35,215 bases of DNA from Hellea sp. (lineage in GTDB: Bacteria > Pseudomonadota > Alphaproteobacteria > Caulobacterales > Maricaulaceae): assembly GCA_020631215.1 (NCBI GenBank), contig JAHDHS010000025.1, positions 1-35,215 of the forward strand, given 5' to 3'. Of the stretch, positions 790 to 20,614 are shown piece by piece. Position numbers and translations under genes: made by a program. The notes below the pieces were generated by a model. The model worked only from the letters and a program-made list of their open reading frames with translations. It did no database searches and had not been told where the DNA came from. The stretch's first letter is position 1, and each line of letters begins with the position of its first letter.

Positions 790-1551
790 CTAGAAACCAT
801 CCGGACGAAGCTGCGCATCCGTGCCGCCATCCACATAAATCACGCTGCCTTGCATGTAATCGGCAGCATCGGAGAGCATGAACTCGATAACGCCGGCGAT
901 TTCGTCCGGATCGGCATAGCGGTCTTTGGGGATCGGAATCATCTCCACGCTTTTACCGATTTGCGGATGATCCGCCGCGCCGCGAAACATGGGCGTCTCC
1001 GTCATGCCCGGCGCAATAGCGTTTAGCGTAATGCCTGCCTTGCCCCACTCAGCCGCCCGGCGGCGCATCGCGCGTGACAAAGCGTGTTTGGAATTGGCAT
1101 AAACCAACGCCCCATGGGCATCGCCAATATATTGCATCGTCTGATCTTCTTTGCCTTCCAGCATAGAGCGCACAATGTCACCCTTAGGCTGCACGCGGCT
1201 TTGCGCGGAATTGGAGGCAATAATAACAACGCGGCCAGATGTCTCTTCCAGCGCATCTTTAAACCCATCCAGCAGTTCCACAGCCCCGAAATAATTCACG
1301 CGGGCGACCAATTGCCCGTTATCTATATGTCCGCCAAGACCCGCAGCCAGAACAAGACGGTCAATTTTACCGCCGCTCATCTCTAACGCCTGATCAATCG
1401 CGGCCTGACGCCCCTCTTGGGTCGATAGATCCGCCTCTATGTCAGCGTTTTTCAGGTCAATCCCGATAATCTCAAGCCCTTGCGCTTTGAGACGTTCTGC
1501 GCAGCATGCGCCGATACCCGAAGCCGAGCCTGTCACAACAGCAAATCCCAT
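790..1551 (-). CDS. Short-chain dehydrogenase, 3-alpha-hydroxysteroid dehydrogenase-like
   Basis: A 253-residue classical SDR. The nucleotide-binding motif is TGSASGIG (residues 7-14), Asp32 after the second strand suggests NAD preference, and the catalytic Ser113, Tyr151 and Lys155 (YANSK) are present. Several stretches closely match, from memory, the Comamonas testosteroni 3-alpha-hydroxysteroid dehydrogenase/carbonyl reductase: ADLSTQEGRQAAI, VNYFGAVELLD, RRRAAEWG and the end YVDGGTDAQLRPDGF. The likely reaction is NAD-dependent oxidation or reduction of a 3-hydroxyl or ketone on a steroid-like substrate in the cytoplasm. It starts 3 bases after the NTF2-like gene and is followed 5 bases later by the acyltransferase, so the three form an operon. 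The family is certain; the steroid specificity is an inference strengthened by the neighbours. Confidence 0.88.
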   Translation of the reverse strand: MGFAVVTGSASGIGACCAERLKAQGLEIIGIDLKNADIEADLSTQEGRQAAIDQALEMSGGKIDRLVLAAGLGGHIDNGQLVARVNYFGAVELLDGFKDALEETSGRVVIIASNSAQSRVQPKGDIVRSMLEGKEDQTMQYIGDAHGALVYANSKHALSRAMRRRAAEWGKAGITLNAIAPGMTETPMFRGAADHPQIGKSVEMIPIPKDRYADPDEIAGVIEFMLSDAADYMQGSVIYVDGGTDAQLRPDGF

Positions 1552-1554
1552 GAT

Positions 1555-2025
1555 CTAATCCTTTATCCATTTGGCCGTTAGGCCATCATCTTTGAGTGTT
1601 CCGTCAATAATGGCGCGCGGTTCAGAGCGCGTATAGCTGATCCGCCATCCCATATCGGTTTTGACATATTTGTCGTGATAGAAACTGGAGAGCAGCCTAA
1701 AGCCATTATCATCCGGGTTATAGGTGGCAAATCCCAAATTCCACACGGCTTGGGCGGTGTCACCGTCAATCTCGATCTCGCCATTATGCCCCTGATGCAC
1801 ATCGGTAATGGGCGTATTCACGGCCATTTGCGTGAAAATCCCGACCAGCCCGTCCAGGTCAAACTCCCCCAGAGGCGGAAAATCAATGACCGCATCCGGC
1901 GTGAAACAGGATTTCATCGCCTCAACATCCTTGCGGTCGCATGCATTCAGATACCGGGCCTTCAGCCGTCGAATATCGCTTTCGGCTTCCAATTTAGCAA
2001 TGCGATCTTCTAGGTTCATAGACAT
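1555..2025 (-). CDS. NTF2/SnoaL-like domain protein
   Basis: A 156-residue protein of the SnoaL_4/NTF2 superfamily. An N-terminal helix (EDRIAKLEAESDIRRLKARY) is followed by the typical acidic segment CFTPDAVIDFP and a conical alpha+beta barrel ending in GWRISYTRSEPR. Members of this fold include ketosteroid isomerases, dehydratases and polyketide cyclases, but many have no known activity. An enzymatic role on the product of the adjacent dehydrogenase is possible. Two in-frame ATGs, at 2025 and 2019, are candidates, and neither has a clear Shine-Dalgarno sequence. A perfect TATAAT lies 15 bases upstream on this strand, so the transcript may be nearly leaderless. It is the first gene of the minus-strand operon with the SDR and the acyltransferase. 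Confidence 0.82.
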   Translation of the reverse strand: MSMNLEDRIAKLEAESDIRRLKARYLNACDRKDVEAMKSCFTPDAVIDFPPLGEFDLDGLVGIFTQMAVNTPITDVHQGHNGEIEIDGDTAQAVWNLGFATYNPDDNGFRLLSSFYHDKYVKTDMGWRISYTRSEPRAIIDGTLKDDGLTAKWIKD

Positions 2026-2039
2026 GTTTCATGTGAAAA

Positions 2040-2045: not shown

Positions 2046-2060
2046 TGTGAGGCTCGCCTA

Positions 2061-2135: not shown

Positions 2136-2173
2136 CAAACTGTCATTTACTTGCGATTCGCTGGATTTCTGCC

Positions 2174-2297: not shown

Positions 2298-3902
2298 ATG
2301 ATCAATTACAGGCGGGCAGTCATTAAAAGCATGGCCGTGCTGTCTGCCTTGGCATTTTCGGCCTGCGGCGAGAAGACCTCAGACTCATTACAAGTGACTT
2401 CAAAAGTGACTTCCGAGACGGCGCGAGCCGCAAATACGCCAGCCGTCAAAGCCCCAGAAAAGAGTTCAGGGCAGCCAAATATCCTGATCATTCTGGCTGA
2501 TGATTTGGGCTGGGCCGATATGGGCTTTCGCGGCAGTGATATTCAGACGCCCAATCTGGACCGTCTCGCGGCGGAAGGGCTGGTGCTGAACCGCTTTTAT
2601 TCCATGCCCATCTGTACGCCAACGCGCTCCGCCCTAATGACCGGGCGTGACCCGATGAAACTGGGCTCTATTTATGCAGGGTTTCAGCCATGGCAGAATG
2701 GCGGCGTCTCGCCGGAGGAACATTTCATGCCGCAGAGCTTTCAGGCGGCGGGCTATCAGACCGCCATGGTCGGCAAATGGCATCTGGGCCATACGACCGA
2801 ACCGCTGACGCCCAATGTGCGCGGCTTTGATCATTTCTTCGGACATCTAAATACGCAGATCGATTATTTCGATTACACAGTGGCGGATGGATATGATCTT
2901 CAGGAAAACGGAGTCTCGGTGCAGCGCGAAGGTTACGCAACGGATGTCCATGCCGATGAGTCTGTGCGTTATCTGACTGAGATACGCGACCGGGAAAAAC
3001 CCTTCTTTTTATATGTGCCTCTGCTCGCCCCCCATTCGCCCATGCAAGCCAAGGACGAAGACTTAGCCAAATACCCAAAGCGCCGTAACCTGCCGGCCAC
3101 GAAGAAAACTTATGCTGCTATGGTCGACAATATGGACCAGGCAATAGGGCGGATTTTGAGCGCGCTGGACGAACAGGGTCTGGCGGAAAATACACTGGTT
3201 TTCTTCTTCTCCGATAATGGCGGGCTGGAGGCTTTCGGGGCGGATAACGGCCCCTATCGCGGAGGTAAGCTGGAGACATTTGAAGGCGGGATTCGCGTGG
3301 CTTCCGTCATGCGATGGCCCGGCCACATCGCGCCGGGAACTCAGACAGATGACGTGGTGTCTGTCGTGGATATCTTTCCCAGCTTCGCAGAAGCTACGGG
3401 TGTGGCCATGGGGCATGAGAAAAAACTGGATGGTCAAAATCGCTGGCCGGCTTTGACAAATTCGGGCCCTGATAAACGTGATGGTGATTTATATTTTGCC
3501 TCTAACTCCCCGATTTATAACAAGTTTCATGTCAGCCTGATCGAAGATAAATGGAAGCTCGTGCAAATTATCGATCATGATTGGAATGAATTAAATATTG
3601 AAAGCTTCCTTTTTGATTTACCAAATGACCCGGGCGAGACAACCAATTTGGCCGAAGCCAATCCGGATGTCGTCAAACGCATGGCGGGCAAAATTCGCAA
3701 ATGGCAAAGCCAGCATCCGATCAATGGGGTGCGTGTCTCGCTCGCCCCGCATCCTGGCTGGCGTGCGCCAAAAGATTACGCCAAATCAGTCATCCCGACA
3801 GAGGATTTACGGGAAGATTATCTGGACAGTTACACTTCGGGCATGCGCGGAAAAATTCTGCAAAGACGTCATGGGGATAAAGGAAAGCTCAGCTATGAGT
3901 AA
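2298..3902 (+). CDS. Formylglycine-dependent sulfatase (arylsulfatase family), probable lipoprotein
   Basis: A 534-residue sulfatase. The N-terminus (residues 1-23) is a signal sequence ending in a lipobox-like FSAC, so Cys23 is probably lipid-modified and the enzyme is outside the cytoplasm. ILADDLG (Asp68, Asp69) supplies metal ligands, CTPTRSALMTGR contains the cysteine (Cys106) that is converted to formylglycine, and FSDNGG holds the second metal-binding Asp-Asn pair. The family hydrolyses sulfate esters; the cysteine type requires a formylglycine-generating enzyme, which is absent from this window. The gene overlaps the next one by 8 bases (ATGAGTAA), implying translational coupling to an alkyl-sulfatase-like protein. 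The start at 2298 has AGGGGA upstream; an internal ATG at 2331 would also keep a signal peptide. Desulfation of a sterol sulfate or a polysaccharide are both possible, and the neighbours favour a small lipid substrate. Confidence 0.93.
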   Translation: MINYRRAVIKSMAVLSALAFSACGEKTSDSLQVTSKVTSETARAANTPAVKAPEKSSGQPNILIILADDLGWADMGFRGSDIQTPNLDRLAAEGLVLNRFYSMPICTPTRSALMTGRDPMKLGSIYAGFQPWQNGGVSPEEHFMPQSFQAAGYQTAMVGKWHLGHTTEPLTPNVRGFDHFFGHLNTQIDYFDYTVADGYDLQENGVSVQREGYATDVHADESVRYLTEIRDREKPFFLYVPLLAPHSPMQAKDEDLAKYPKRRNLPATKKTYAAMVDNMDQAIGRILSALDEQGLAENTLVFFFSDNGGLEAFGADNGPYRGGKLETFEGGIRVASVMRWPGHIAPGTQTDDVVSVVDIFPSFAEATGVAMGHEKKLDGQNRWPALTNSGPDKRDGDLYFASNSPIYNKFHVSLIEDKWKLVQIIDHDWNELNIESFLFDLPNDPGETTNLAEANPDVVKRMAGKIRKWQSQHPINGVRVSLAPHPGWRAPKDYAKSVIPTEDLREDYLDSYTSGMRGKILQRRHGDKGKLSYE

Positions 3903-5292
3903 GGTCTTAAAAATTCTGGCACGACTGATCGGATTACTGGTTGTTGGTTTTGCTATTCTGTATTTATTCTTTCCGGGCTTCAAGAAATCGCTTCAGTTAA
4001 AAGCCGTAGATAAGATGGGCGATGTCGCGGTTAAGCGTATGTCGGAGAACCCTGATGCGGCTGGATCTGTCGCGGCGGAATTTATCAATATTCCGATTAA
4101 GGCGCGGGAAATATCCGGCGGTGTTTGGCAGGCGACCGGCGTCGGCAATGCCCATCTGATCACGACGTCGGGTAAGGATGTGCTCTTCGATACCGGGTTA
4201 TCGACTCAGGCGCCCAAACAAATCAAAGCCCTTAAAGACGCCGTTCCGGATTTGGAGCTTTCCCACATCATCACATCACATTCCCATGCCGATCATGCAG
4301 GCGGCGTGAAATTCTGGGATGAAGACGGGATTGATATTGTCGCCCATGCCGAATTTGTGGAGGAACAGCGTTATCTAACCGAATTGCAGGATTATTTTTG
4401 GCATCGTAACCGGACTCTTTTTCCCTTTATGCCTGAAAGCCCGCCCACGATCGGCCTGATCGCCTATGGCGGTATTGAACCGACAATGACCGTTGCCAAT
4501 GGTCAGCCCTTGAAAGTTACGCAAGGCGGCGTGGAATTTGAACTTTATGCGCTGCCGGGGGCGGAAGGGGCGGATAATCTGGTTCTGTGGCTGCCGCAGA
4601 AGAAGATATTATTCTCCGGTGATTTCTTCGGGCCTTTATTCCCGCAATTTCCCAATATTTTCACTATGCGCGGTGAGAAAATCCGTAAACCTGTCGAATA
4701 TGTCAATTCATTGGATGTCATCATTGATCTTGATCCCGATATGATCGTCCCCAGTCACAAAGATCCCATCACCGATAAGGCCGTCATTCGCGAGGGTCTG
4801 GTGAAAATGCGCGACGCCACGAAATATGTGCATGACCAAACGGTTGAAGGCATGAATGCCGGAAAGAAGCTGGAGCAGCTTATGGCTGAAATTCAGCTGC
4901 CTGCAGAACTGGCCCTGACTCAGGAACATGGCAAGGTCAGCTGGGCCGTCAAATCGATTTGGGAATATTACGCGACCTGGTTCCATTTTGACAAAACGAC
5001 GGAGCTTTATCACGTGCCTCAAAGCGCGGTTCATTCTGATATTCTCGAATTGGTGGACGGGGAAGCGCTTGTGAAAAAGGCGGCAGATTATATCGCGCAA
5101 GATAAACCCCTGGAGGCTCTGCATTTGCTGGATATTGTTGATGGCGGAGGCGTTGATAATACGGCCGTCTTGGATGCGCGGATCAACGCGCTAAACATTC
5201 TGAAAAGCCGTGCCGAAGCAGGGGAGAAAAACAGCTATGAGATATACTGGCTGAATTACCGGATCAGAGAGACCGAGGCGAGGTTGCAATAA
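3895..5292 (+). CDS. MBL-fold metallo-hydrolase with alkyl-sulfatase-type C-terminus, membrane anchored
   Basis: Start chosen at 3895, inside the stop region of the sulfatase, because it gives a protein (465 residues) that opens with a clean membrane segment (residues about 7-27). The frame is open further upstream but that part lies inside the sulfatase gene. Residues 129-134 (HSHADH) are the zinc-binding motif of the metallo-beta-lactamase fold, and FDTG (98-101) and PSHKDP follow as expected. The segment after about residue 290 (VHDQTVEGMNAGKKLEQLM, then WEYYATWFHFDKTTELY) resembles the dimerisation region of SdsA1/BDS1-type alkyl sulfatases. It probably hydrolyses an ester, perhaps a sulfate ester, on the outer face of the inner membrane. 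It is shorter than typical 600-residue alkyl sulfatases, so the substrate may differ. Confidence 0.85.
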   Translation: MSKVLKILARLIGLLVVGFAILYLFFPGFKKSLQLKAVDKMGDVAVKRMSENPDAAGSVAAEFINIPIKAREISGGVWQATGVGNAHLITTSGKDVLFDTGLSTQAPKQIKALKDAVPDLELSHIITSHSHADHAGGVKFWDEDGIDIVAHAEFVEEQRYLTELQDYFWHRNRTLFPFMPESPPTIGLIAYGGIEPTMTVANGQPLKVTQGGVEFELYALPGAEGADNLVLWLPQKKILFSGDFFGPLFPQFPNIFTMRGEKIRKPVEYVNSLDVIIDLDPDMIVPSHKDPITDKAVIREGLVKMRDATKYVHDQTVEGMNAGKKLEQLMAEIQLPAELALTQEHGKVSWAVKSIWEYYATWFHFDKTTELYHVPQSAVHSDILELVDGEALVKKAADYIAQDKPLEALHLLDIVDGGGVDNTAVLDARINALNILKSRAEAGEKNSYEIYWLNYRIRETEARLQ

Positions 5293-5422: not shown

Positions 5423-6283
5423 TCATGAGTGTTTTTTCACCCACCCATCTAATCGCTCACATAATAAGCTTATGGATTGAAAGGCGAAATGATTATGGCC
5501 TGTGTCCGGCAAGATAATTAATTCATGACTGGGCGCATTGATATAGTCTTTAGGGGCGTCTTCGGGTGGGATGCCAATGTCATGATCGCCAAAGGCAAAA
5601 AACATTGGTTTATCAATAGCTTCGACCTCAGCTCTAAAGCTACCGCGGACCATGCTCATCATGCCGCCTGCCGCATAAAGCGTGCTAGTGATTTCACGCA
5701 GCCTTTCAGTCAGTTCCGGGGTCTCGCCGCCAAAAGTGATCGACTTTCCGCTTGGGCCCTGATTGGGATATTCGATAAAATCTGAGCCGAATTTATTCAG
5801 CGTCAGTTTCTTGATGTCGCGCTCAAGGGCTTCGGGCTTTTCAATATAAGCTCGTTCGTCATCAGACAGCCCCCAATCCAGACCGCCCGCGCTGGAGCCG
5901 AATAGGCCGATGGCTTTGAACAGATTGTGGCGCGCTTGGATTAGAGTGATAACCATGCCGCCCATGGAATGACCAATGCCGATCATAGGCGTTTTGATGT
6001 TCATAAGCTTAATCGCTTCGGCGAGGAGGTCGGCGGCTTGGCGGGGTTTGAGAAAAGGATAATCTTCGGGCAGCGGATTACTGGCTGTGCCCGGATGATC
6101 CATCGTGATGACGCGGTAGCCGCGTTTCGTCATGCGCTGTGCAAAGCTGTGATCGGGGGTCAGGTTAAAAAGTTCATCCGTCACGCCGCCGCCCGGGAGG
6201 CATAGCAGTGTGATGTTTTTGAGATCACCCAGAGGCGCATAGTCATGCGCCGTAAAGTCTATGCCCTCGGCCTTGACGGTCAG
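5423..6283 (-). CDS. Alpha/beta hydrolase, non-canonical start
   Basis: An alpha/beta-fold hydrolase with nucleophile elbow GHSMGG, a later GDHDIG segment supplying the acid, and DTGHNH supplying the catalytic histidine. The only ordinary start codon (GTG at 6184) would remove the first strand and the oxyanion-hole LPGGG. The same frame continues upstream without a stop through TVKAEGIDFTAHDYAPLGD and NITLLCLPGGG, which looks like genuine coding sequence. There is no ATG, GTG or TTG in that extension. A CTG at 6283 would give 286 residues, a normal family length, and an ATC is another option. The gene follows the ferredoxin on the same strand, 23 bases or less downstream, so coupled translation is plausible. 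The substrate is unknown; ester or thioester hydrolysis is typical of the family. Confidence 0.8.
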   Translation of the reverse strand: MTVKAEGIDFTAHDYAPLGDLKNITLLCLPGGGVTDELFNLTPDHSFAQRMTKRGYRVITMDHPGTASNPLPEDYPFLKPRQAADLLAEAIKLMNIKTPMIGIGHSMGGMVITLIQARHNLFKAIGLFGSSAGGLDWGLSDDERAYIEKPEALERDIKKLTLNKFGSDFIEYPNQGPSGKSITFGGETPELTERLREITSTLYAAGGMMSMVRGSFRAEVEAIDKPMFFAFGDHDIGIPPEDAPKDYINAPSHELIILPDTGHNHFAFQSISLLCERLDGWVKKHS

Positions 6284-6306: not shown

Positions 6307-6621
6307 TTAGGCTTCTGGCGCGATTTCTATGGCTAGGCCGTCATGCTCTACGCCGATTTTGATCTGGCAGGAGAGGCGGGAGCCCTCTCTGATTTCGACA
6401 AAATCCTCCAGCCCTTCAAGCATATAGCCTTCATCTTCGGTGCGTTCTCCGGCCTTGGCCGCATCCGCGAAATAGACATGACACGTCCCGCAGCTCGCCA
6501 CGCCGCCGCATGTGCCCTCAACCAGGCCCGCGTCTCGCAGGGCATCCATCATCGGCGTGCCTTCCGGCGCCTCAACCGTTTGGGATTCACCTTCAAGGGT
6601 CGTGATGTTCAGTTTTGCCAT
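6307..6621 (-). CDS. Adrenodoxin-type [2Fe-2S] ferredoxin
   Basis: A 104-residue ferredoxin with the four cluster ligands Cys38, Cys44, Cys47 and Cys85 in the C-x5-C-x2-C ... C arrangement of the adrenodoxin/putidaredoxin group. This group carries single electrons to class I cytochromes P450, so the P450 at 15171-16571 is the obvious partner; the Rieske oxygenase is an alternative. No ferredoxin reductase is present in the window. It is divergent from the CoA-transferase operon across a 100-base region that contains a dyad matching the one beside the TetR gene, so its expression is probably co-regulated with that operon. Confidence 0.93.
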   Translation of the reverse strand: MAKLNITTLEGESQTVEAPEGTPMMDALRDAGLVEGTCGGVASCGTCHVYFADAAKAGERTEDEGYMLEGLEDFVEIREGSRLSCQIKIGVEHDGLAIEIAPEA

Positions 6622-6721: not shown

Positions 6722-9136
6722 ATGGCGGGTGTTTTAGACGGAATCAAGGTGTTGGATTTATCCTGGGGGATTGCCGGACCCATGACAGGCATGTTGCTGG
6801 CTGATCACGGCGCGGATGTCACGCGGATTGAGCGCCCCGAAGGTGATCCGTTTGACGGCATGCTGGGCTATAAGGTCTGGCATCGCGGCAAGAAAAACGC
6901 TGTTTTGAACCTGAAAACCGTGGGCGATTTGGGCCTGTTTAAAAAGCTGGTCGCGGATGCGGACGTTCTGATCGAAACCATGACGCCGGGAAAGATGGCG
7001 CAGTTGGGTTTGAATTACGAAGAGCTCGCCAAGATTAACCCCAAGCTGATTTATTGTTCTATTTCCGCTTATGGCGATGATGATGCGCGCCCGGCCTATG
7101 ACGCGCAAGTCGCAGCCGAGAGCGGCCTGCAATGGGAGCAGCGCGGCTGGCCGGAAGGGGCGCTTTATCACATGGCGGGGCGTGAAGACCCGTTCGCCGA
7201 AGCTGTCGAAATTGATCCCAATCATGTGCAGGGCGCAAACCGGGAAGGCCCGCTGCATCTGGCGTCCAAATGGCCGAGCCTGGGCGCGTTTTTCTCGGCG
7301 ATCACAGGTATTTCCGCCGCGCTCTTTGCCCGCGAAAAGACAGGGCGCGGCCAGAAGGTCAGCACCAGCCTGTTGCAAGGCGCGATGGCCTGCGGCTCGG
7401 GTGTCTGGCAGCGCGCCGAAGATATTGATGCGCCCGGATTTAACACCTGGATCATGGGCAGCGCCTCGCCCAAAGGCCACTTTAAATGCGCGGACGGTAA
7501 ATGGCTGCACAATTGGGTGCCCAATCCACGCTTCATCTTAGAGGCTTCCAAAGGCGATAAGCTGGATGCATCCCCCGATCTGACGGTTCAGAACGACCCG
7601 GACCGTTTCGGCATAGGCCCGGAAGAGCTCCTTGTGATGGCGCATTATCAGCCCATTCTGGCCGATGCCGTCGCCAAGTTTAACTGCGATGACTGGGTCA
7701 AGGCGGCCTCAGACGGGAATATGACCATGCAGCCTTGCCGCTCTATCGAGGAAAGCCTGACCGACCCGCTGCTGCTGGATGATAATTGTGTCGCAACCGT
7801 CAATGACCCGGAGCTTGGCCCGATCAATCAAGTCGGCATCACTTACCGCCTGACCCATTCGCAGGGGCAAATTCAAGGCCCGACCCGCGCGAGCGGAGCC
7901 GACACAGAGGCTGTCAAAGCTTATGCCCAAAGCCTGCCTGACCCCCATGTCGAGAAAGTCCCGGCGCAGCCCACGGGCAAAGGCCCGCTGGACGGTATTC
8001 GCGTGCTGGATCTCGGCCTGGCGATTGCGGGTCCGTTCGGGTGTCAGCTTTTGGCAGATATGGGCGCAGATGTGATTAAGATGAACACGCTCTGGGACAG
8101 CTATTGGCATAAGACACATATCGCCGCCATGGCCAACCGCAATAAGCGCAGCTTTGCAGTGATGTTGAAACACCCCAAAGGCATGGAGGCGCTCAAGAAA
8201 GTCATCGCGACTTGTGACGTGGTACAGCACAATATGCGCTATCCGGCCACACAGCGTTTGGGTCTGGATTATGACAGCCTGAAAAAAGAATTCCCGCGCC
8301 TTATCTATTGCCACTCCCGCGGCTTTGAAGAAGGCCCGCGCAAGAACCTACCGGGCAATGACCAAACGGGTGCCTGTCTGTCCGGCGTACAGCACGAAGA
8401 CGGCGCGCTTTATGCGGGCGGGGATACACATCCCGTCTGGGCACTGACCTCTCTGGGCGATACCGGCAATGGCTTCCTGACCGCCGTCGGGATTTGCAAT
8501 GCGCTGATGGAGCGCGAGCGCACAGGCAAGGGCCAGTTTGTGGATACGTCCATCATCAATGCCTGCCTGCTGAACTCAAGTCATGCCGTCGCAAAGCCGG
8601 ATGGATCGGCTGTGGACAGGCCGATGCTGAATGCTGATCAAACGGGTTACGGCGATTATTACCGCCTCTATCAATGCGCGGATGGAGCGTGGATACAAAT
8701 TGCAGCGATCCGCCCGGAACAAAAAACCGCCTTTGACGCGCTGGCAGGGGATGACAAAATTGCCGCCTTTGCCGGACGCGGATCGGCGGAATTGCTGGCT
8801 GATCTTGGCAAGGCCGGTATTCCGGCATCTTTGTCTGACGCAGAGGCCTCCCGCCGCTTATTTGATAATGCGGATTACAAGGCCAAAAACTGGACGGCGG
8901 AATATCAAGACCGTTATGTCGGAAAACTTGAGCAGATCGGCTTGACATATGCCTTGTCCGATACGCCGGGCGTGATTGGCGCGCCGCCGCTCATAGTAGG
9001 CGACAGTACCAAAGCGATCTTAGAGGAAATTGGCTATAGCGAAGAAGAGATTCTCGCCATGGCCAATGAAACCGCGATCCTGTGTGATCCGCCGGTGCCG
9101 GGACAAAAAGAAATGCAAAATCCATGGGGCTTGTAG
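6722..9136 (+). CDS. Fused double family III CoA-transferase (CaiB/BaiF type)
   Basis: An 804-residue protein made of two tandem CaiB/BaiF units. The first begins at residue 3 (LDGIKVLDLSWGIAGP, then LLADHGADVTRIERP) and the second at about residue 420 (LDGIRVLDLGLAIAGP, then LLADMGADVIK). A single unit is about 400 residues, so this is a full duplication-fusion. The family moves coenzyme A between carboxylic acids without ATP. Fused double forms are frequent in actinobacterial and proteobacterial steroid or lipid gene clusters. It opens a tightly packed operon of six genes and ends 1 base before the GTG of the DUF35 gene. Its promoter region carries the TetR-type dyad. The acid substrate cannot be read from sequence; a steroid side-chain acid fits the neighbours. 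Confidence 0.92.
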   Translation: MAGVLDGIKVLDLSWGIAGPMTGMLLADHGADVTRIERPEGDPFDGMLGYKVWHRGKKNAVLNLKTVGDLGLFKKLVADADVLIETMTPGKMAQLGLNYEELAKINPKLIYCSISAYGDDDARPAYDAQVAAESGLQWEQRGWPEGALYHMAGREDPFAEAVEIDPNHVQGANREGPLHLASKWPSLGAFFSAITGISAALFAREKTGRGQKVSTSLLQGAMACGSGVWQRAEDIDAPGFNTWIMGSASPKGHFKCADGKWLHNWVPNPRFILEASKGDKLDASPDLTVQNDPDRFGIGPEELLVMAHYQPILADAVAKFNCDDWVKAASDGNMTMQPCRSIEESLTDPLLLDDNCVATVNDPELGPINQVGITYRLTHSQGQIQGPTRASGADTEAVKAYAQSLPDPHVEKVPAQPTGKGPLDGIRVLDLGLAIAGPFGCQLLADMGADVIKMNTLWDSYWHKTHIAAMANRNKRSFAVMLKHPKGMEALKKVIATCDVVQHNMRYPATQRLGLDYDSLKKEFPRLIYCHSRGFEEGPRKNLPGNDQTGACLSGVQHEDGALYAGGDTHPVWALTSLGDTGNGFLTAVGICNALMERERTGKGQFVDTSIINACLLNSSHAVAKPDGSAVDRPMLNADQTGYGDYYRLYQCADGAWIQIAAIRPEQKTAFDALAGDDKIAAFAGRGSAELLADLGKAGIPASLSDAEASRRLFDNADYKAKNWTAEYQDRYVGKLEQIGLTYALSDTPGVIGAPPLIVGDSTKAILEEIGYSEEEILAMANETAILCDPPVPGQKEMQNPWGL

Positions 9137-10685: not shown

Positions 10686-10991
10686 ATGGGTCAGGTCTAT
10701 AAACCCGGAACGAAACTTTCCAGCACGGTCTGCAAGACACAGATCATGGCCTTGCGCGTCCCGGCAGAAGAACTGGAAATCACTTGCGGCGGCGCGCCCA
10801 TGCAGATCGGCGATCCGGCGGAGCTCGGCGCCATGAGCGGAGAGAATAGCGGCACTCTGGTTGGCAAACGCTACACGGATGCGGAGGAGACGATGGAATT
10901 TCTTTGCACGCGCGGCGGTGACGGGACAATTGCGGTCGAGGGTTATGTGATCGATATTAAGGCCGCCAAAAAACTCCCGAGTTCGGATTAG
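10686..10991 (+). CDS. Small conserved-looking protein of unknown function
   Basis: A 101-residue soluble protein with no signal peptide or membrane segment. It starts one base after the stop of the thiolase homologue. It has three cysteines (VCKTQ, ITCGG and LCTRGG), hydrophobic strands such as IMALRVP and the segment GTLVGKRYTDAEETMEFLCT, suggesting a small beta-rich fold. I cannot assign a named domain with confidence. Its position, sandwiched between the thiolase/DUF35 pair and two CoA-ester enzymes in one operon, suggests an accessory or third subunit of the CoA-ester machinery. Confidence 0.75.
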   Translation: MGQVYKPGTKLSSTVCKTQIMALRVPAEELEITCGGAPMQIGDPAELGAMSGENSGTLVGKRYTDAEETMEFLCTRGGDGTIAVEGYVIDIKAAKKLPSSD

Positions 10992-10996
10992 GGCAT

Positions 10997-14442: not shown

Positions 14443-14452
14443 AAGCGACTAT

Positions 14453-14467
14453 CCGAACAACGTTCGG
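14453..14467. promoter_or_regulatory. Candidate TetR operator, copy B (perfect dyad)
   Basis: CCGAAC-AAC-GTTCGG is a perfect 6-3-6 dyad. It lies in the 27-base gap between the divergent starts of the crotonase (14442) and the TetR gene (14470), so a bound dimer would block both, including its own gene. A one-mismatch copy lies at 6666-6680. Confidence 0.78.
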
Positions 14468-14469
14468 AA

Positions 14470-15171
14470 ATGTCAATTATGAAGAGTATGACAAGAAAAA
14501 AACACGTAAAACAGGGGGCTTACGGGCGCCCCAGGCTCCTGACGCATGAAGAGATACTTGAAGGGGCTGTTGAGTTGGGCCTTGAGGGCCTGACGATGAA
14601 GAAACTGGCCGACAAGCTGAATGTCGGAACTGCCACGCTTTACCAATATTTCGACAGCCGCAAATCTTTGATGCGCGCCGCCGCTGTTCATTCACTGTCG
14701 GACGTGCCGCTTCCCAGCGATAAAGGACAGCATTGGTCAAAGCTTGCGCGGGACTATGTGTTCAGCATCCAAAACCTGCTCGCGGAAAACCCGTCATTTA
14801 TCTACAGTCACCAACACAGCGATTATGGCTTTGAAGTTCACTTTCGCCTGATCGAACCCTTTTTGGCGTCCATGAAGGCCAGAGGGTTTTCCGCCTCTGA
14901 GGGCATGGAAGTGTTTAATATCGTCGGTATGGCCGCTTTTTCCGGAGCCGTGGAGACGGTGCGGCAGAGAGAATTCGAATATCAGGACGAAACGATGCAA
15001 GTCGTTGCTAGGCGCCAATTTGATCGATTGGATAAAAAGAACTTCCCGCTTCTCAAAGAGGCGTTTGAGACATTCGCAATGACCCCCGAGCATAAGGTCA
15101 ATGCCCTTCTTCTGGCTGCCTTTACGACAATCGCGAAACAGCGCGGAGAAGATCTGGAGGGTATTCTTTAA
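14470..15171 (+). CDS. TetR/AcrR-family transcriptional regulator
   Basis: A 233-residue protein with an N-terminal helix-turn-helix of the TetR type (residues about 21-67): EEILEGAVELG, then TMKKLADKLNVGTATLYQYF, then DSRKSLM. The remainder is an all-helical ligand-binding and dimerisation domain with no recognisable ligand. ATGs at 14470, 14479 and 14488 are all in frame; none has a good ribosome-binding site at proper spacing, and the first follows the dyad by 2 bases. It overlaps the P450 gene by one base (TAATG), so regulator and P450 share a transcript and the P450 is probably autoregulated with it. The likely inducer is a pathway acid or its CoA ester, by analogy with KstR-type regulators. 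Confidence 0.92.
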   Translation: MSIMKSMTRKKHVKQGAYGRPRLLTHEEILEGAVELGLEGLTMKKLADKLNVGTATLYQYFDSRKSLMRAAAVHSLSDVPLPSDKGQHWSKLARDYVFSIQNLLAENPSFIYSHQHSDYGFEVHFRLIEPFLASMKARGFSASEGMEVFNIVGMAAFSGAVETVRQREFEYQDETMQVVARRQFDRLDKKNFPLLKEAFETFAMTPEHKVNALLLAAFTTIAKQRGEDLEGIL

Positions 15172-16586: not shown

Positions 16587-17609
16587 ATGAACGCACCTGT
16601 AAACCCCGATCACATTCAAACCGGAGACGAGCTTGAACGTTGTCCGTTTCCTATTCCCTATGGCTGGTACAATGTCCATTTCAGTCATGAGCTGAAAGAA
16701 GGCGACATCAAAATCGAGAAAGTCTTTGGCAAGGAGTGGGTTCTGTTCCGAGGCGAAGATGGCAGTGTAGGCATGACAGACCCGTATTGCCCACATCTTG
16801 GGGCGCATTTGGGCAAAGGCGGCAAAGTCGTTGGCAATAACATCCAGTGCCCTTTCCACAATTGGGAATTTGACTCTGAAGGATGGTGTAAGAAGATTCC
16901 ATATGGTAAAGTGATGCCAGGGATTGCCCGGAAAAAAGCCATTCTGAAAGCCCTACCGGTTGTCGAGAAATATGGCGCGATCTGGGCGTGGTACCATCCG
17001 CATGGCGAAGAGCCGATGTGGGAGATCCCGGTCGTTCCCGAATTTGAAGACCCTGATAATCACGTCGAAGTCAAATATCACTTCTGGGATATTGGCACCT
17101 GTATTCAGGAAATGGGCGAAAACTCTGTTGATACGCCGCATTTAAAATTCCTGCATGGCGCACCGATTATCCCGAGTGTTGAAGCCAAGGCTGAGGGCCA
17201 TATCTGGCACTATGATATCATGGATGGATATATCGTTGGCGAAAGCCACGGGCCCGGCATTCCGCTGAACCGTCATACCAAGGACGGCGTGTCCATGTTG
17301 ATGTTTGCCACGCCGACACCGACTGATGAGGAAATGTCGCGCGTGCGTATGATGTTTACATGGAAGAAATATCCGGAGGGTTCCAAAGAAGCCGCTCTTG
17401 GGCAACATCTTTATGAGCATTCTATCGGAGAGGCCGAAGGCGAGGAGTCTGCTGGTTTTGAATCCGTGGATTTGATTGTCTGGGACAATAAAAAATATCG
17501 TCCTAAACCACTTCTGTGTGATGGTGACGGCCCGATTATCGCTTGGCGGAAATATTTCAGGCAATTCTATGTTGATCTGGATGAGACTGATCCGGCGGTT
17601 GCAATTTAA
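16587..17609 (+). CDS. Rieske non-heme iron oxygenase, DAF-36/Neverland/KshA-like
   Basis: A 340-residue Rieske oxygenase with a strong AAGGAG ribosome-binding site. The Rieske cluster ligands are Cys68-x-His70 and Cys88-x2-His91 (YCPHLGAHL and CPFHNW). The catalytic iron motif is GENSVDTPHLKFLHG, giving Asp182, His185 and His190 with Asn179 in front. The pattern E-N-x-x-D-x-x-H-L-x-x-x-H is closer to the animal cholesterol 7-desaturases DAF-36 and Neverland than to ring-hydroxylating dioxygenases, and bacterial 3-ketosteroid 9-alpha-hydroxylase KshA is a relative. The likely role is hydroxylation or desaturation of a steroid ring. No dedicated reductase is nearby. It overlaps the following dehydrogenase by one base. 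Confidence 0.92.
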   Translation: MNAPVNPDHIQTGDELERCPFPIPYGWYNVHFSHELKEGDIKIEKVFGKEWVLFRGEDGSVGMTDPYCPHLGAHLGKGGKVVGNNIQCPFHNWEFDSEGWCKKIPYGKVMPGIARKKAILKALPVVEKYGAIWAWYHPHGEEPMWEIPVVPEFEDPDNHVEVKYHFWDIGTCIQEMGENSVDTPHLKFLHGAPIIPSVEAKAEGHIWHYDIMDGYIVGESHGPGIPLNRHTKDGVSMLMFATPTPTDEEMSRVRMMFTWKKYPEGSKEAALGQHLYEHSIGEAEGEESAGFESVDLIVWDNKKYRPKPLLCDGDGPIIAWRKYFRQFYVDLDETDPAVAI

Positions 17610-18397
17610 TGGGACGACTTGAGGGCAAAGTTTGCATCATTACCGGTGCGGCCCGCGGTATGGGAGAGGCGACAGCCCGCCTATTCGCTGCCGAGGGCGC
17701 TAGGGTCATATTGACAGATGTTCTGGAAGCAGAAGGTAAATCTGTCGCCGCCGACATAGGCGAAAATGCTGAGTTTCATACTTTGGACGTCTCAAATGAC
17801 CAAAGCTGGTCAGAGATTGTGGGCGCCGTCCAAGGCAAGCACGGCACCATTGATGTTCTCATCAATAACGCCGGGCTTGTTCATTTTACGCCAATTGAGC
17901 ATTTTAATCCCGATGATGCCGGTAAAATTCTCGGCGTGAATACGGTCGGCCCAATGTTGGGGGCGAAAAATGTCGTGCCCGTGATGAAGGCTGCCGGAAA
18001 AGGCTCTATTGTTAATATTAGCTCCGTCGACGGGCTGCGCGGCTGTAACGGGCTGACACTTTACACGGCGTCCAAATGGGCGCTCAGGGGGTTGACCAAA
18101 TCTCTGGCTTATGAGCTCGGTACATCGGGCGTTCGCGTCAATTCCGTACATCCCGGAGGTGTTGATACACCCATGGGCAATGCGCGCGGCTTGCCACCGG
18201 ATCAGCTCAACATGGCTTTTCGGCGCGTGCCGCTGCAACGGATTGGTCAACCGGATGAGGTCGCACAAGCCTCGCTGTTCCTCGCCAGTGACGAAGCCAG
18301 CTATGTTACGGGGGCAGAGCTCGCCGTCGATGGCGGTTGGGGCGCAGGCTATTTTCAACCTGTCCTGCCCGGCGCACCGGAAGGGTTGCCGCCCTAA
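17609..18397 (+). CDS. Short-chain dehydrogenase, 3-alpha/20-beta-hydroxysteroid dehydrogenase-like
   Basis: A 262-residue classical SDR with TGAARGMG (residues 12-19), Asp37 suggesting NAD use, NNAG (86-89), and the catalytic Ser139, Tyr152 and Lys156 (YTASK). The segments ELGTSGVRVNSVHPGGVDTPM and YVTGAELAVDGGW closely match, from memory, Streptomyces 3-alpha,20-beta-hydroxysteroid dehydrogenase and its mycobacterial FabG3 relatives. It overlaps the Rieske gene by one base and so probably oxidises the alcohol made by one of the two oxygenases. Fold and NAD-dependent dehydrogenase activity are secure; steroid specificity is inferred. Confidence 0.9.
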   Translation: MGRLEGKVCIITGAARGMGEATARLFAAEGARVILTDVLEAEGKSVAADIGENAEFHTLDVSNDQSWSEIVGAVQGKHGTIDVLINNAGLVHFTPIEHFNPDDAGKILGVNTVGPMLGAKNVVPVMKAAGKGSIVNISSVDGLRGCNGLTLYTASKWALRGLTKSLAYELGTSGVRVNSVHPGGVDTPMGNARGLPPDQLNMAFRRVPLQRIGQPDEVAQASLFLASDEASYVTGAELAVDGGWGAGYFQPVLPGAPEGLPP

Positions 18398-18407: not shown

Positions 18408-18521
18408 TGTCATCCCGGACAAGCCGCTTTCGGCGCGATCCGGGACCTCGTCTTAGTAGAATGGTGGGTATAGAGGTCCCGGCTCTGCGTCCTTCGGACT
18501 GGGCCGGGATGACAATTTTTT
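18408..18521. repeat. Nested inverted-repeat element ending in a T tract
   Basis: TGTCATCCCGG (18408-18418) pairs with CCGGGATGACA (18504-18514). Inside it, CCGGGACCTC (18440-18449) pairs perfectly with GAGGTCCCGG (18473-18482). Six T residues follow at 18516-18521. The outer arms are typical of the TGTCATCCCGG intergenic repeats spread through many alphaproteobacterial genomes. The location, 10 bases after a stop codon and with a T tract, would let it act as a partial terminator before the next gene. Confidence 0.75.
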
Positions 18522-18534
18522 GTAGGAAAATGAA

Positions 18535-20118
18535 TTGCTTAAAAAGCTACTTAAATTTCTAACCATCTTACTCGTACTGCTGATTGTGGCACTGCTTTTC
18601 ATTCGCTGGAAGATCGATCATGACCCCGCAGCGGTCACGCCCCTGCCTATGAGCACGGAAGGGGTTGATCTAACACCGAGCATCGATGCGGATTTTACCC
18701 CGCAAACCTTGCCGCCGACGGGTGAGCCGCAAAATCCCTTTATGGCAGAAACTGATCAAAGCGTCATGCATTCGGGCGGCTGGGAAAGCGATACCCATCC
18801 GGCGGCAGCGGTGATGTCAAAAGATGTCAAAATCATCTCCCGACGTGTTGGGGGCTCCGCAGCGCGGCAATGCGCAACGTTTACTTTCACCTCCCAAGGC
18901 TATCCGCTGGCGCTCTGCGGCGGTTTCACAAGCTTTCAGTTGCAGCTATTCGATCCCGATACGCTGGAGCGTCTCGCAAAATTTGACTTGCCTATGCGGC
19001 CTTCGGGCATTGAAGCTATGGTAAAAAAAGACCCGGAAATTATCTTCTCAGACACCTCCAGTGCCTATGTGTATCTGGATGATGAGGACCGTATCATTAT
19101 TGGCGATAGCAAGCAGCGCATTCGCCGCATAGGCCCAATTAAAGACGGCAGCAAGTGGACGTTCAAGGTGTTTGATAGCTGGGATATGACTCCGCATTTA
19201 CCGCGTGATTGTTTTACCCTAGCCAATCAAAACCCCGAAGGCGAATGCGACGCGCTAACCACCGTTATGCCGGACTATGCTGGCCTGCTATGGTGGGTAA
19301 CACGCAATGGCCGTATTGGCTCACTTGATCCTGACTCAGGGAAAGTCGTCGCAACAGATTTCGGCGGCGAGGAAGTCCAGAACTCTTTCGCGATTGATGA
19401 AAGCGGTGCTTATGTTGTGACCGATCATGCCATGTACAGGCTAGAGCTTGTGGATGGTCTGCCAACCCAAAGATGGCGTATCGCTTATGATCGGGGAACG
19501 GGCCGGAAAGTCGGCTCTATCAATCAGGGCAGTGGAACGTCCCCCAGTATTTTTGGCGGCGGGAAATATGTTACTTGGACGGATAATGCCGATGATCGCA
19601 TCGCCTTGATCGTGGCACATACCAAAGATTTGCCGGAGGGCCGGAACCGTCAAATATGCCGGGTGCCCGTTTTTGCCAGCGGGGGTAGCGCGACTGATAA
19701 TTCTATGATTGCCTATGACCGTTCTATCATTCTGGAGAATAATCACGGCTACACAAATGCCATCCAGCATAAGGATTATAACTCCGTGACGGGCGGGGTC
19801 GTCCGTGTTGATGTGCGTGAGGATGAGAGTGGCTGCGATGTAATCTGGGAGTCAGATTTGAAAGTGCCGTCTGTGGTGCCCAAACTCAGCCTAGGAAATG
19901 GCATTGCGTATTTTTACAGCTTTGATTTACTGGAAAATGGCGACCGTCTGTGGGCGCTGGTCGGTCTGGATTTTGAGACCGGCAAGGAAGTTGTCCGTAT
20001 CCCGACGGGCACGGGCGTGGCCTATAATAATAACTGGGCCAGTATTGCGATTGCGCCTAATGGCGATACCTATGTTGGTACGCGGGAAGGCTTGTTAAAG
20101 GTTTCTGATCATGACTGA
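18535..20118 (+). CDS. Membrane-anchored periplasmic beta-propeller-like protein, unknown function
   Basis: A 527-residue protein starting at a TTG with AGGA seven bases upstream; an ATG at 18530 is out of frame. Residues 2-25 form one hydrophobic segment after a lysine-rich start, so the rest probably lies in the periplasm. That part has repeated strand-turn units rich in Trp, Gly and Asp (for example LDDEDRIIIGDSKQRIRRI, YAGLLWWVTRNGRIGSLDP, AIAPNGDTYVGTREG), as in propellers of the PQQ- or NHL-like kind. I cannot name a family. It overlaps the VOC gene by 8 bases and follows the P450-Rieske-SDR genes on the same strand after a repeat element. A sensor, binding protein or periplasmic oxidoreductase are all possible. 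Confidence 0.8.
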   Translation: MLKKLLKFLTILLVLLIVALLFIRWKIDHDPAAVTPLPMSTEGVDLTPSIDADFTPQTLPPTGEPQNPFMAETDQSVMHSGGWESDTHPAAAVMSKDVKIISRRVGGSAARQCATFTFTSQGYPLALCGGFTSFQLQLFDPDTLERLAKFDLPMRPSGIEAMVKKDPEIIFSDTSSAYVYLDDEDRIIIGDSKQRIRRIGPIKDGSKWTFKVFDSWDMTPHLPRDCFTLANQNPEGECDALTTVMPDYAGLLWWVTRNGRIGSLDPDSGKVVATDFGGEEVQNSFAIDESGAYVVTDHAMYRLELVDGLPTQRWRIAYDRGTGRKVGSINQGSGTSPSIFGGGKYVTWTDNADDRIALIVAHTKDLPEGRNRQICRVPVFASGGSATDNSMIAYDRSIILENNHGYTNAIQHKDYNSVTGGVVRVDVREDESGCDVIWESDLKVPSVVPKLSLGNGIAYFYSFDLLENGDRLWALVGLDFETGKEVVRIPTGTGVAYNNNWASIAIAPNGDTYVGTREGLLKVSDHD

Positions 20119-20614
20119 TTTTGGCCCCATCACACAATTAGGCTATCTGACCGATGATTTGGATGAATCAGTAAAGCCATGGGTTACAGCTGGTATTGGC
20201 CCATGGACACGAATGTCAGGGGTTACAATGGCTGCCACGATGGACGGTCAGGCTGTCGATATAAAAATAGATTTGGCACTCTCCTATCAGGGCGACATTC
20301 AAATGGAATTGATACAACCAATTTGCGATAGCCCGTCTCCCTACCTGGCTAATAAGAAAGCCGGGATATGGGGCGCACACCATACGCAGTTCACTGTCGA
20401 TAATTTGGATGAAGCTATCAGCATCTGCGAATCGGCCCGTATGGAGATGGCCTGCGAGATCACATCCGGCGGCGGACGGTACATATACATGCGCGGCGCG
20501 GCGGGTTGGGTTGAACTGGTTGAGCCTAATCCGGGTCTACAGATCATGTTCGACATGATTAAAAAATCTTGCGAAGACTGGGACGGTAAAGCGCTTTGGA
20601 ATACGTTGGACTAG
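20111..20614 (+). CDS. VOC (glyoxalase/bleomycin resistance fold) family protein
   Basis: A 167-residue VOC protein with two beta-alpha-beta-beta-beta modules: ITQLGYLTDDLDESVKPWV near the N-terminus and GAHHTQFTVDNLDEAISIC at about residue 92. The second ends with WVELVEPN, supplying the metal-binding glutamate. The first metal position, usually histidine, appears to be Gln9, so the metal site may be altered or the protein may be a binder. Its start overlaps the propeller-like gene by 8 bases. VOC proteins in degradative clusters are often extradiol dioxygenases, epimerases or isomerases; this one is too short for an extradiol dioxygenase. Its stop codon shares the palindrome CTAG with the stop of the convergent pentapeptide-repeat gene. 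Confidence 0.85.
   Translation: MTDFGPITQLGYLTDDLDESVKPWVTAGIGPWTRMSGVTMAATMDGQAVDIKIDLALSYQGDIQMELIQPICDSPSPYLANKKAGIWGAHHTQFTVDNLDEAISICESARMEMACEITSGGGRYIYMRGAAGWVELVEPNPGLQIMFDMIKKSCEDWDGKALWNTLD

What the first reader, a model, noticed from the sequence alone, without database searches (positions are those of the whole stretch)
790..20614. Candidate sulfated-sterol or steroid degradation programme with an unusual enzyme mix
Within 20 kb there are a secreted sulfatase coupled to an alkyl-sulfatase-like protein, a P450 with a likely ferredoxin, a DAF-36/Neverland-like Rieske oxygenase, two different hydroxysteroid-type SDRs, an SCP2/Ltp2-like protein with its DUF35 partner, two CoA-transferases, a crotonase and a TetR regulator. 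The known actinobacterial and Comamonas steroid gene sets do not have this combination, as far as I recall. The substrate is not shown by the sequence: no ring-cleavage dioxygenase (HsaC/TesB type) or KstD is in the window.
Basis: partly seen in the sequence, partly recalled or inferred. Interest (0 to 1): 0.8.

Follow-up and report, generated by a model that had tools for sequence, protein, structure and literature searches.

The report
Sterol-degradation gene island with sulfatases
This is one segment of a large gene island with which bacteria related to the marine genus Hellea probably take apart sterols, perhaps including the sulfated ones that algae make, using a side-chain enzyme set unlike the textbook one of mycobacteria.

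Summary
The gene list is real, and the suspected ferredoxin gene exists (6307-6621, minus). The window is a whole contig of a Hellea-like alphaproteobacterial genome. KstD, HsaA/C/D and KshA homologues, absent from the window, lie on other contigs of that genome; in the type strain Hellea balneolensis they and the window's genes share one ~85-kb stretch. 'Steroid degradation' is therefore well supported. The segment is a module of P450, ferredoxin, Rieske oxygenase, SDR, Ltp2-DUF35 aldolase and CoA-transferases with a TetR gene; a palindrome marks two of its promoters and, in two relatives, a third before alcohol/aldehyde dehydrogenase genes. Ltp2 keeps both catalytic tyrosines. The P450 resembles CYP51, not CYP125. 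The Rieske protein forms a clade apart from KshA. Two sulfatases accompany it in 11 of 18 carrier genomes: all 11 Hellea/IMCC14465-type, none of 5 other alphaproteobacteria and of 2 odd MAGs. A sulfated-sterol substrate is plausible, not shown. New variant of a known kind (9,10-seco steroid catabolism), testable in a cultured strain.

The parts
2..784 (-). BAHD-type acyltransferase homologue, cut by contig end
   Evidence: PF02458 4.1e-7; window is the whole 35215-base contig C80; 57% to a 436-aa H. balneolensis protein
790..1551 (-). SDR (SDR1)
   Evidence: PF13561/PF00106; 74% in G001, 71% in G018, 81% in H. balneolensis
1555..2025 (-). SnoaL-like protein
   Evidence: PF13577 1.9e-28
2298..3902 (+). 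S1 sulfatase, lipoprotein-like N-terminus, C-T-P-T-R formylglycine site
   Evidence: PF00884; C-T/S-P-T-R in 15 of 15 aligned sulfatases
3895..5292 (+). Membrane-anchored metallo-beta-lactamase / alkyl-sulfatase-like protein
   Evidence: PF00753, PF14863; HSHADHAGG; SdsA-type PDB matches
5423..6184 (-). alpha/beta hydrolase
   Evidence: PF12697; 58-59% in G001
6307..6621 (-). [2Fe-2S] adrenodoxin-type ferredoxin, likely P450 redox partner
   Evidence: C-x5-C-x2-C motif, homologues beside the hydrolase in G001, H. balneolensis, IMCC14465 C13
6665..6681 (.). Candidate TetR operator, 1 mismatch to TCCGAACNNNGTTCGGA, between ferredoxin and CoA-transferase genes
   Evidence: same place in G001 and H. 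balneolensis
6722..9136 (+). Double CoA-transferase (two CoA_transf_3 domains)
   Evidence: PF02515 3.3e-133, 2 stretches
9138..9527 (+). DUF35 partner of Ltp2 (zinc finger C-x2-C-x10-C-x2-C)
   Evidence: PF12172 + PF01796; PDB 6ok1_B 2e-20
9527..10684 (+). Ltp2-type steroid side-chain aldolase
   Evidence: PRK07855 487.3 bits over cut-off; PDB 6ok1_A 6.7e-117, Tyr294 and Tyr344 equivalents kept
10686..10991 (+). Conserved 101-aa ORF of unknown function
   Evidence: homologues in G001 (75812), H. balneolensis and IMCC14465
10997..12190 (+). CoA-transferase III homologue with long N-terminal extension
   Evidence: PF02515 at residues 189-383
12184..13479 (+). Amidohydrolase_3 family protein
   Evidence: PF07969 1.1e-28
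13456..14442 (-). Crotonase homologue with N-terminal extension
   Evidence: PF00378 5.9e-33 at 158-327
14452..14468 (.). Candidate TetR operator, perfect palindrome TCCGAACAACGTTCGGA
   Evidence: perfect in 12 of 16 crotonase/TetR gaps examined among the loci
14470..15171 (+). TetR-family regulator
   Evidence: PF00440
15171..16571 (+). Cytochrome P450, CYP51/CYP46-like by similarity
   Evidence: PF00067 8e-56; best PDB match CYP51 2.9e-34; FGRGPHSCLG heme site
16587..17609 (+). Rieske oxygenase, KshA_C family, own clade
   Evidence: PF00355 + PF19298; tree
17609..18397 (+). SDR (SDR2)
   Evidence: PRK07231 247.6 bits over 215 cut-off
18535..20118 (+). Membrane-anchored protein, probable beta-propeller, no family
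   Evidence: no Pfam/NCBIfam match; model mean pLDDT 63.5, Foldseek propellers
20111..20614 (+). Glyoxalase_4 family protein
   Evidence: PF13669 1.8e-10

Best explanation
[quoted passage not shown] Proposed order: outer-membrane import of sterols or sterol sulfates (TonB receptor, in relatives); desulfation in the periplasm by the lipoprotein sulfatase, helped by the membrane-anchored MBL protein (inferred); 3-OH oxidation by SDRs (inferred); hydroxylation of the side chain by the P450 with the ferredoxin, then alcohol and aldehyde dehydrogenases (in relatives) to an acid; CoA activation by a ligase and/or the CoA-transferases; beta-oxidation; final removal of the C3 side chain by Ltp2-DUF35; then homologues of KstD, KshA, HsaA-G and IpdAB encoded elsewhere in the island open the rings. 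The TetR protein represses the module through the palindromes (inferred). The Rieske oxygenase acts on the sterol nucleus or side chain at an unknown position. Shown: gene content, synteny, catalytic residues, palindrome positions. Inferred: substrates, order, regulation.
For: Type strain H. balneolensis: homologues of KstD, two sulfatases, the module, a KshA-like Rieske, HsaA/D/E/G/F/C and IpdA/B within C2:647-731 kb; family assignments made on G001 and own proteins. Own genome: HsaC-like on C20 (84% to G001), KstD-like on C51 (83%) beside a second sulfatase, HsaE/G/F-like + KshA-like on C67. In 40 relatives HsaC-like at E<1e-100 and KstD-like at E<1e-40 occur in the same 3 genomes, P450 (E<1e-20) in 2 of those 3 and in none of the other 37. 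G018, with the ring-opening set but without P450 or this Rieske, has no Ltp2 match at E<1e-40. Ltp2 keeps Tyr294/Tyr344 (residue roles from passages of PMC12329534). Palindromes at homologous promoters in three genomes, background mean 0.1 in 10 resamplings each. Sulfatases in 11 of 11 Hellea/IMCC14465-type and 0 of 5 other alphaproteobacterial carriers. FGE in the island of G001 and H. balneolensis and on an island contig of four more.
Against: No experiment. HsaA, HsaC, HsaD and KstD homologues of G001 score below the NCBI equivalog cut-offs (315/450, 220/450, 175/400, 544/789), and for HsaC the BphC model scores higher. No MaoC hydratase or acyl-CoA dehydrogenase sits beside Ltp2 in the window, unlike igr operons. 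Ltp2 also serves bile-acid degradation (PMC12502768). The island also holds a bile-salt-type side-chain locus. The own genome lacks the CoA ligase found beside the second CoA-transferase in relatives (only a 48% homologue), and has only a 51% FGE, not on a fetched island contig; 7 of 13 sulfatase-bearing genomes show no FGE on an island contig. SDR3/ALDH were not searched in the own genome. Croceicoccus has Rieske and Ltp2 homologues but no P450 match. Weak HsaC-family matches (30-32%) occur in two relatives without the module, G015 and G024.
Confidence: 0.65

Rival explanations
1. The module degrades bile acids, bile alcohols or other C24/C21 steroids (possibly sulfated conjugates), not C27-C29 sterols.
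For: Ltp2-type aldolases remove the propionyl residue in cholic acid degradation too (PMC12502768, abstract and passages); the island holds a CasG-like ligase + amidohydrolase_2 + Rieske locus in the order seen in Sphingobium TomTYG72.
Against: That bile-type locus is separate, and G018 has its homologues without P450, Ltp2, close sulfatases or this Rieske; bile acids already carry a carboxyl group and need no P450 (established knowledge); the DUF35 has the C4 zinc finger, not the C3H1 type of the bile-acid Shy (PMC12329534), though a C4 finger is the common state and so weak evidence.
Confidence: 0.17
2. P450 and Rieske remove methyl groups (14-alpha and C4) from lanostane or 4-methyl sterols, such as dinoflagellate sterols or echinoderm saponins, before ring opening.
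For: P450 closest to CYP51s in sequence and among the best in the fold search; NCBIfam SdmA (4beta-methylsterol monooxygenase) is the best model for the Rieske, 59 bits, far below its 600 cut-off; kin in a cyanobacterial cluster with a squalene-cyclase-type gene.
Against: Identity to CYP51 in the fold search is only 19-23%; the alcohol and aldehyde dehydrogenase genes of relatives share the palindrome, which fits side-chain acid formation; Rieske occurs without a P450 match in Croceicoccus.
Confidence: 0.1
3. The sulfatases and MBL protein serve sulfated polysaccharides or other sulfate esters and merely lie next to the steroid genes.
For: Best solved relatives are carrageenan sulfatases (6b0k iota-carrageenan sulfatase 1.2e-77), human steryl-sulfatase only about 1e-45; no palindrome with at most 2 mismatches was found upstream of the sulfatase.
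Against: In G000 and G001 both close homologues (E<1e-180) lie on contigs with steroid genes, one of them beside KstD; two matches accompany the module in 11 of 11 Hellea/IMCC14465-type carriers (in G052 one is a fragment); FGE on an island contig in 6 of 13 such genomes; no glycosidase or polysaccharide lyase among the 20 ORFs of G001 C12 scanned with Pfam (the rest of C12 was not scanned).
Confidence: 0.15
4. The cluster makes a modified steroid or triterpenoid rather than degrading one.
For: P450 and Rieske are related to those of a Planktothrix plasmid cluster with squalene-cyclase-type and squalene-synthase-type genes.
Against: No cyclase or synthase among the window genes; CoA-transferases, Ltp2 aldolase and the ring-opening homologues of the island are catabolic.
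Confidence: 0.03

Closest known systems
Actinobacterial cholesterol pathway (CYP125, igr operon ChsE1E2-ChsH1H2-Ltp2, KstD, KshAB, HsaA-G)
   Same: Ltp2 + DUF35 with both catalytic tyrosines; ring-opening homologues in the same island; P450 plus side-chain CoA chemistry
   Different: None of the 60 listed PDB matches of the P450 is named CYP125, CYP124 or CYP142 (60 of 430 shown); DUF35 stands alone; TonB receptor (in relatives) and sulfatases; no Mce search was made; own Rieske clade
Predicted CYP125-based cholesterol side-chain oxidation in Phenylobacterium zucineum (PMC8197338, passages)
   Same: Alphaproteobacterium, P450-started sterol side-chain oxidation predicted from genome only
   Different: CYP125 there, found in 1 of 599 species; here a CYP51-like P450 with Rieske, sulfatases and TetR
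Sphingomonad bile-salt side-chain loci (Sphingobium TomTYG72; Caenibius bsd I in PMC12882949, passages)
   Same: Alphaproteobacterial; ligase + amidohydrolase + Rieske; own C25 locus has this layout
   Different: That is a different locus of the island; the window Rieske is 38% identical to it and forms another clade
Comamonas testosteroni ORF40-44 and Shy-Sal
   Same: DUF35-dependent thiolase-like aldolases
   Different: MaoC-DUF35 fusion there; window DUF35 single domain; window aldolase YDNF + Tyr344 equivalent, not Sal's YDCY + Gln352
KshA, 3-ketosteroid 9alpha-hydroxylase
   Same: Rieske + KshA_C domains, iron-ligand motif
   Different: 29-30% identity, separate clade; a better KshA candidate exists on C67 (PDB KshA 2e-44)
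SdsA1 alkyl sulfatase
   Same: MBL domain and dimerisation domain, HxHxDHxGG
   Different: No C-terminal alkyl-sulfatase domain matched, membrane anchor present, best PDB match 2.9e-18

Membership tests
[quoted passage not shown]
   Own genome C51, C67, C20; contiguous in H. balneolensis
[quoted passage not shown]
   315/450, 220/450, 175/400, 544/789 bits; on own C67 the aldolase (TIGR03217) and acetaldehyde dehydrogenase (TIGR03215) models pass, the hydratase (TIGR03220, 363.5/408.8) does not
[quoted passage not shown]
   needs culture
Ltp2 (C3 side-chain aldolase) | Catalytic Tyr294 and Tyr344, DUF35 partner | tested here: met
   YDNF and GEGYIHG, 6ok1_A 6.7e-117; DUF35 6ok1_B 2e-20. His296 of TcLtp2 is Asn here
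Sal (C5 bile-acid aldolase) | YDCY motif, Gln352, C3H1 DUF35 zinc finger | tested here: not met
   YDNF, Tyr, C4 finger (features from PMC12329534)
CYP125/CYP142 sterol C26 hydroxylase | Closest sequence relatives are CYP125/124/142 | tested here: not met
   the 60 listed of 430 PDB sequences are CYP51, CYP46A1, CYP120, CYP3A, CYP102-type and others, none with those names, some only called 'cytochrome P450'; Foldseek's 50 listed alike
KshA | Rieske + KshA_C domains and iron-ligand motif | tested here: met
   PF00355, PF19298; D-x2-H-x4-H
KshA | Groups with characterised KshA | tested here: not met
   own 100/100 clade, apart from PDB KshA (100/100) and the C67 clade; the tool warns of long branches, deep placement unsure
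Neverland / DAF-36 | Groups with animal cholesterol 7-desaturases | not testable with these tools
   none named among the 31 PDB matches of the Rieske and the genome sets are prokaryotic; the likeness is recalled only
S1 sulfatase | C/S-x-P-x-R site, metal and sulfate-site motifs, FGE in genome | tested here: met
   (FGE is common: 37 of 40 relatives)
S1 sulfatase acting on sterol sulfate | Hydrolysis of a sterol sulfate | not testable with these tools
   needs assay
SdsA1-type alkyl sulfatase | MBL + dimerisation + C-terminal domain | tested here: not met
   first two only
TetR regulon | Shared palindrome at module promoters above background | tested here: met
   2, 3 and 3 sites (at most 2 mismatches) in three islands against a mean of 0.1 in 10 resamplings each; homologous positions. 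Binding not tested

The most novel reading that the evidence does not exclude
A TetR-controlled sterol-sulfate utilisation system of marine Alphaproteobacteria: lipoprotein sulfatases, in several genomes with a formylglycine-generating enzyme of their own, a P450 side-chain oxidase unrelated in family to CYP125, and a Rieske oxygenase of a new clade that carries out a sterol step absent from the known pathways, present even in small genomes (IMCC14465 type), so that ocean bacteria would consume algal sterol sulfates.
Probability: 0.25. Interest if true: 0.85.

Novelty: new variant of a known kind. Interest (0 to 1): 0.6.

Why it matters
[quoted passage not shown] Holert et al. 2018 isolated gammaproteobacteria that grow on cholesterol and predicted steroid degradation in Hyphomonadaceae, with Hellea-assigned hits in Cymbastela sponge metagenomes (PMC5790920, passages); the passages I saw give no genes for sterol side-chain attack there. 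One alphaproteobacterium with CYP125 has been predicted to oxidise the cholesterol side chain (PMC8197338, passages). This island offers a different, concrete candidate set (P450 + ferredoxin + ADH/ALDH + Ltp2) in a species with a type strain, and a candidate sink for diatom sterol sulfates (PMC6356472, abstract).

Tried and rejected
Rejected: (1) that the P450 lacks a ferredoxin: my first ORF list (>=120 aa) missed it, a motif scan found it. (2) That many sulfatase orthologues had lost the active site: my regular expression was too strict; the alignment shows C-T/S-P-T-R in 15 of 15. (3) MaoC hydratase in the island: a crude motif scan of G001 C12 printed none; weak evidence. (4) Reading the window Rieske as the KshA of the organism: C67 is the better candidate. 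(5) C67 as a full hsa operon: Pfam shows AtuA, carboxylase and other genes there besides the HsaE/G/F and KshA homologues. (6) Structure of the 18535-20118 protein: mean pLDDT 63.5, so 'beta-propeller' is tentative. (7) The P450 model (mean pLDDT 79.8, residues 390-398 around the heme site under 50) does not separate P450 families. (8) Plasmid search with the double CoA-transferase listed only ~30% generic hits (12 of 1205 records listed).

Dropped or partial: 18 of the 26 loci were used; the 8 left out are L028, L033 (the contig of G001 itself), L034, L035, L037, L038, L049, L050, for the most part short contigs. One search used 17 of those 18 (L042 left out) plus G000, G001, G015, G018, G024; one search used 16 of the 18 (L042 and L051 left out) plus G000, G001, G018. 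L042 (Opitutia MAG) and L051 (Thermoanaerobacterales MAG) look like a misbinned contig and a distant paralogue. The protein-family budget ended, so many island genes are labelled by homology to G001 only, and some G001 labels (FadE types, PaaK and so on) rest on my reading of homology or Pfam superfamily.

Full report
WHERE IT IS. The window is the complete 35215-base contig C80 of a 2.55-Mb, 96% complete genome in 81 contigs. The closest Rieske homologues (78-89%) are in MAGs named Hellea, Hyphomonadaceae, Caulobacterales or Sphingomonadales and in the type strain Hellea balneolensis DSM 19091. From about 20.6 kb on, the window holds a pentapeptide-repeat protein and mainly housekeeping genes (B12 ribonucleotide reductase, trigger factor, ClpX/ClpP, Lon, tRNA-Val).

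THE GENES. All classes named in the finding are confirmed. The ferredoxin is at 6307-6621 on the minus strand, upstream of the alpha/beta hydrolase and divergent from the double CoA-transferase. The sulfatase has a CTPTR site and a lipoprotein-like N-terminus (lipobox clearer in some orthologues). The MBL protein is membrane-anchored with HSHADHAGG. The 804-aa CoA-transferase is two domains in one chain; the second CoA-transferase and the crotonase carry long N-terminal extensions with no Pfam match.

THE REST OF THE PATHWAY. In the sister genome G001 (same genus) the 112-kb contig C12 carries most of the module's genes plus homologues of KstD (56.1 kb), HsaA, D, E, G, F, C (36.5-42.2 kb), a CoA_trans pair (IpdA/B-like), an NMO-family protein (IpdC-like), a KshA-like Rieske (5.1 kb) and a bile-salt-type locus (10.7-15.2 kb). 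HsaA, HsaC, HsaD and KstD score under the NCBI equivalog cut-offs, so these names rest on family, gene order and co-occurrence; for HsaC the best model is in fact BphC (TIGR03213, 251 bits, also under its cut-off; HsaC model 220). In H. balneolensis homologues of the same genes lie in C2:647-731 kb. In the window's own genome they are on C51 (KstD-like, second sulfatase, FadE-type by homology), C20 (HsaA/D/C-, IpdA/C-like and others) and C67 (HsaE/G/F-like, KshA-like).

CO-OCCURRENCE. In 40 relatives, HsaC-like at E<1e-100 and KstD-like at E<1e-40 are in the same 3 genomes (G000, G001, G018); weaker HsaC-family matches of 30-32% are in G015 and G024. P450 (E<1e-20) and this Rieske (E<1e-200) are only in G000 and G001, as are the two close sulfatases (E<1e-180); weaker sulfatase matches are in G010 and G024. 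If placed at random, both P450 genomes would fall among the 3 HsaC genomes with probability 0.0038, ignoring kinship. G018 has ring-opening and bile-type homologues but no match for P450 (E<1e-20), Ltp2 (E<1e-40) or sulfatase (E<1e-60); its Rieske proteins are at most 39% identical to the window's. Among 18 genomes carrying the Rieske homologue: HsaC-like 16, P450 15, sulfatases 11. The 11 are eight Hellea/Hyphomonadaceae and three IMCC14465-type genomes (PS1 clade and marine habitat are recalled); each has two matches, one of them a fragment in G052. None of G047 and G053-G056 (Sphingomonadales or unassigned alphaproteobacteria) and neither of the two odd MAGs (G050, G057) has them. Kinship is not corrected for.

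MECHANISM CLUES. (a) Ltp2: the residues equivalent to TcLtp2 Tyr294 and Tyr344 are kept (YDNF, GEGYIHG), the Cys of Sal's YDCY is not; every Ltp2 orthologue printed has YDNF where TcLtp2 has YDHF. The DUF35 zinc finger is the C4 type. By the passages of PMC12329534 this is the C3 side-chain type; the Comamonas Ltp2 shows that bile-acid degraders use it as well (PMC12502768). (b) Palindrome TCCGAACNNNGTTCGGA: with at most 2 mismatches it occurs 2, 3 and 3 times in the window, G001 C12 and the H. balneolensis 100-kb stretch, against a mean of 0.1 in 10 first-order resamplings of each; the positions are homologous: crotonase/TetR, ferredoxin/CoA-transferase, and, in the two relatives, upstream of SDR3-ALDH. 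With 3 mismatches the window gave 4 hits against 1.6 expected, and 8 of 100 shuffles reached 4, so only the sites with 0-1 mismatch are meaningful. In 16 crotonase/TetR gaps among the loci, 12 have the perfect palindrome, 1 (L033, the G001 contig) has one mismatch, and 3 (L039, L046, L050) lack it. IMCC14465 has a 2-mismatch site in the same gap and a 3-mismatch site in the ferredoxin/CoA-transferase gap. No such site precedes the sulfatase. (c) SDR3 and ALDH homologues sit with the Rieske and a sulfatase in IMCC14465 and beside the P450 in L039, which fits alcohol-to-acid oxidation after P450 hydroxylation. (d) An FGE lies inside the island in G001 and H. balneolensis, and on a contig with sulfatase or HsaC in G040, G042, G043, G045: 6 of 13 sulfatase-bearing genomes searched. 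In the other 7 (G000, G041, G044, G046, G049, G051, G052) the best matches are 45-54% and on contigs where no island gene was found. FGE homologues are common in relatives (37 of 40), so presence alone says little.

RIESKE AND P450. The Rieske tree of 43 rows puts 25 window-type proteins in one clade (100/100), apart from PDB KshA (100/100), the C67 KshA-like clade and the bile-type clade; the three Planktothrix proteins join the last two groups' neighbourhood with 89/92 support, not firm; the tool warns that long branches meet. The own C67 Rieske matches PDB KshA over 13-333 at 2e-44, the window's at 2.8e-30. P450: 77% mean column identity over 16 sequences; nearest solved sequences are CYP51 and others; none of the 60 listed of 430 is named CYP125, CYP124 or CYP142.

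WINDOW-SPECIFIC GAP. Relatives have a CoA ligase between the 101-aa ORF and the second CoA-transferase; the window does not, and the best own-genome match is 48%. In the window a SnoaL-like gene, and no TonB gene, lies between SDR1 and the sulfatase; G001 and H. balneolensis have a TonB receptor there.

PRIOR ART. The listings of searches showed no paper whose title names this module or bacterial sterol-sulfate catabolism with a 9,10-seco island; listings are capped, most subscription papers are not held, and PMC8552905 on Sphingobium side-chain degradation was not available. Steroid degradation in Hyphomonadaceae was already predicted (PMC5790920), and a CYP125-based cholesterol side-chain pathway was predicted for one alphaproteobacterium (PMC8197338). 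Verdict: a new variant of a known kind, interest 0.6.

Noticed in passing
L052 (NZ_LR882940.1, 36.5-57.8 kb): Planktothrix agardhii plasmid p2 carries a sterol- or triterpenoid-like biosynthetic cluster: squalene-cyclase-type protein, phytoene/squalene synthase, four P450 entries, three Rieske proteins, SDR, emopamil-binding protein, carbamoyltransferase.
   Followed up: partly
L086-L089 (IMCC14465, C5, C10, C13): A 1.9-Mb alphaproteobacterial genome (PS1 clade, recalled) holds ring-opening homologues with two sulfatases, P450, Rieske and Ltp2.
   Followed up: partly
window 10992-10996: The CoA-ligase gene present here in relatives is missing; only 5 bases separate the 101-aa ORF from the CoA-transferase.
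   Followed up: yes
window 2-784: BAHD-type acyltransferase homologue (family best known from plants, recalled) at the contig end; homologue in the H. balneolensis island.
   Followed up: no
L019 6416-11820 (own C67): AtuA and carboxylase genes of acyclic-terpene utilisation type lie a few kb from the HsaE/G/F and KshA homologues; possible link to branched side chains.
   Followed up: no
window 18535-20118: Conserved membrane-anchored protein with no family, probable beta-propeller.
   Followed up: partly
L042 (NZKY01000001.1): Contig of an 'Opitutia' MAG carries IMCC14465-type genes next to a 73% Rieske homologue; probably misbinned.
   Followed up: no
window 28216-29502: DUF4419 protein between trigger factor and a GST-like protein.
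   Followed up: no
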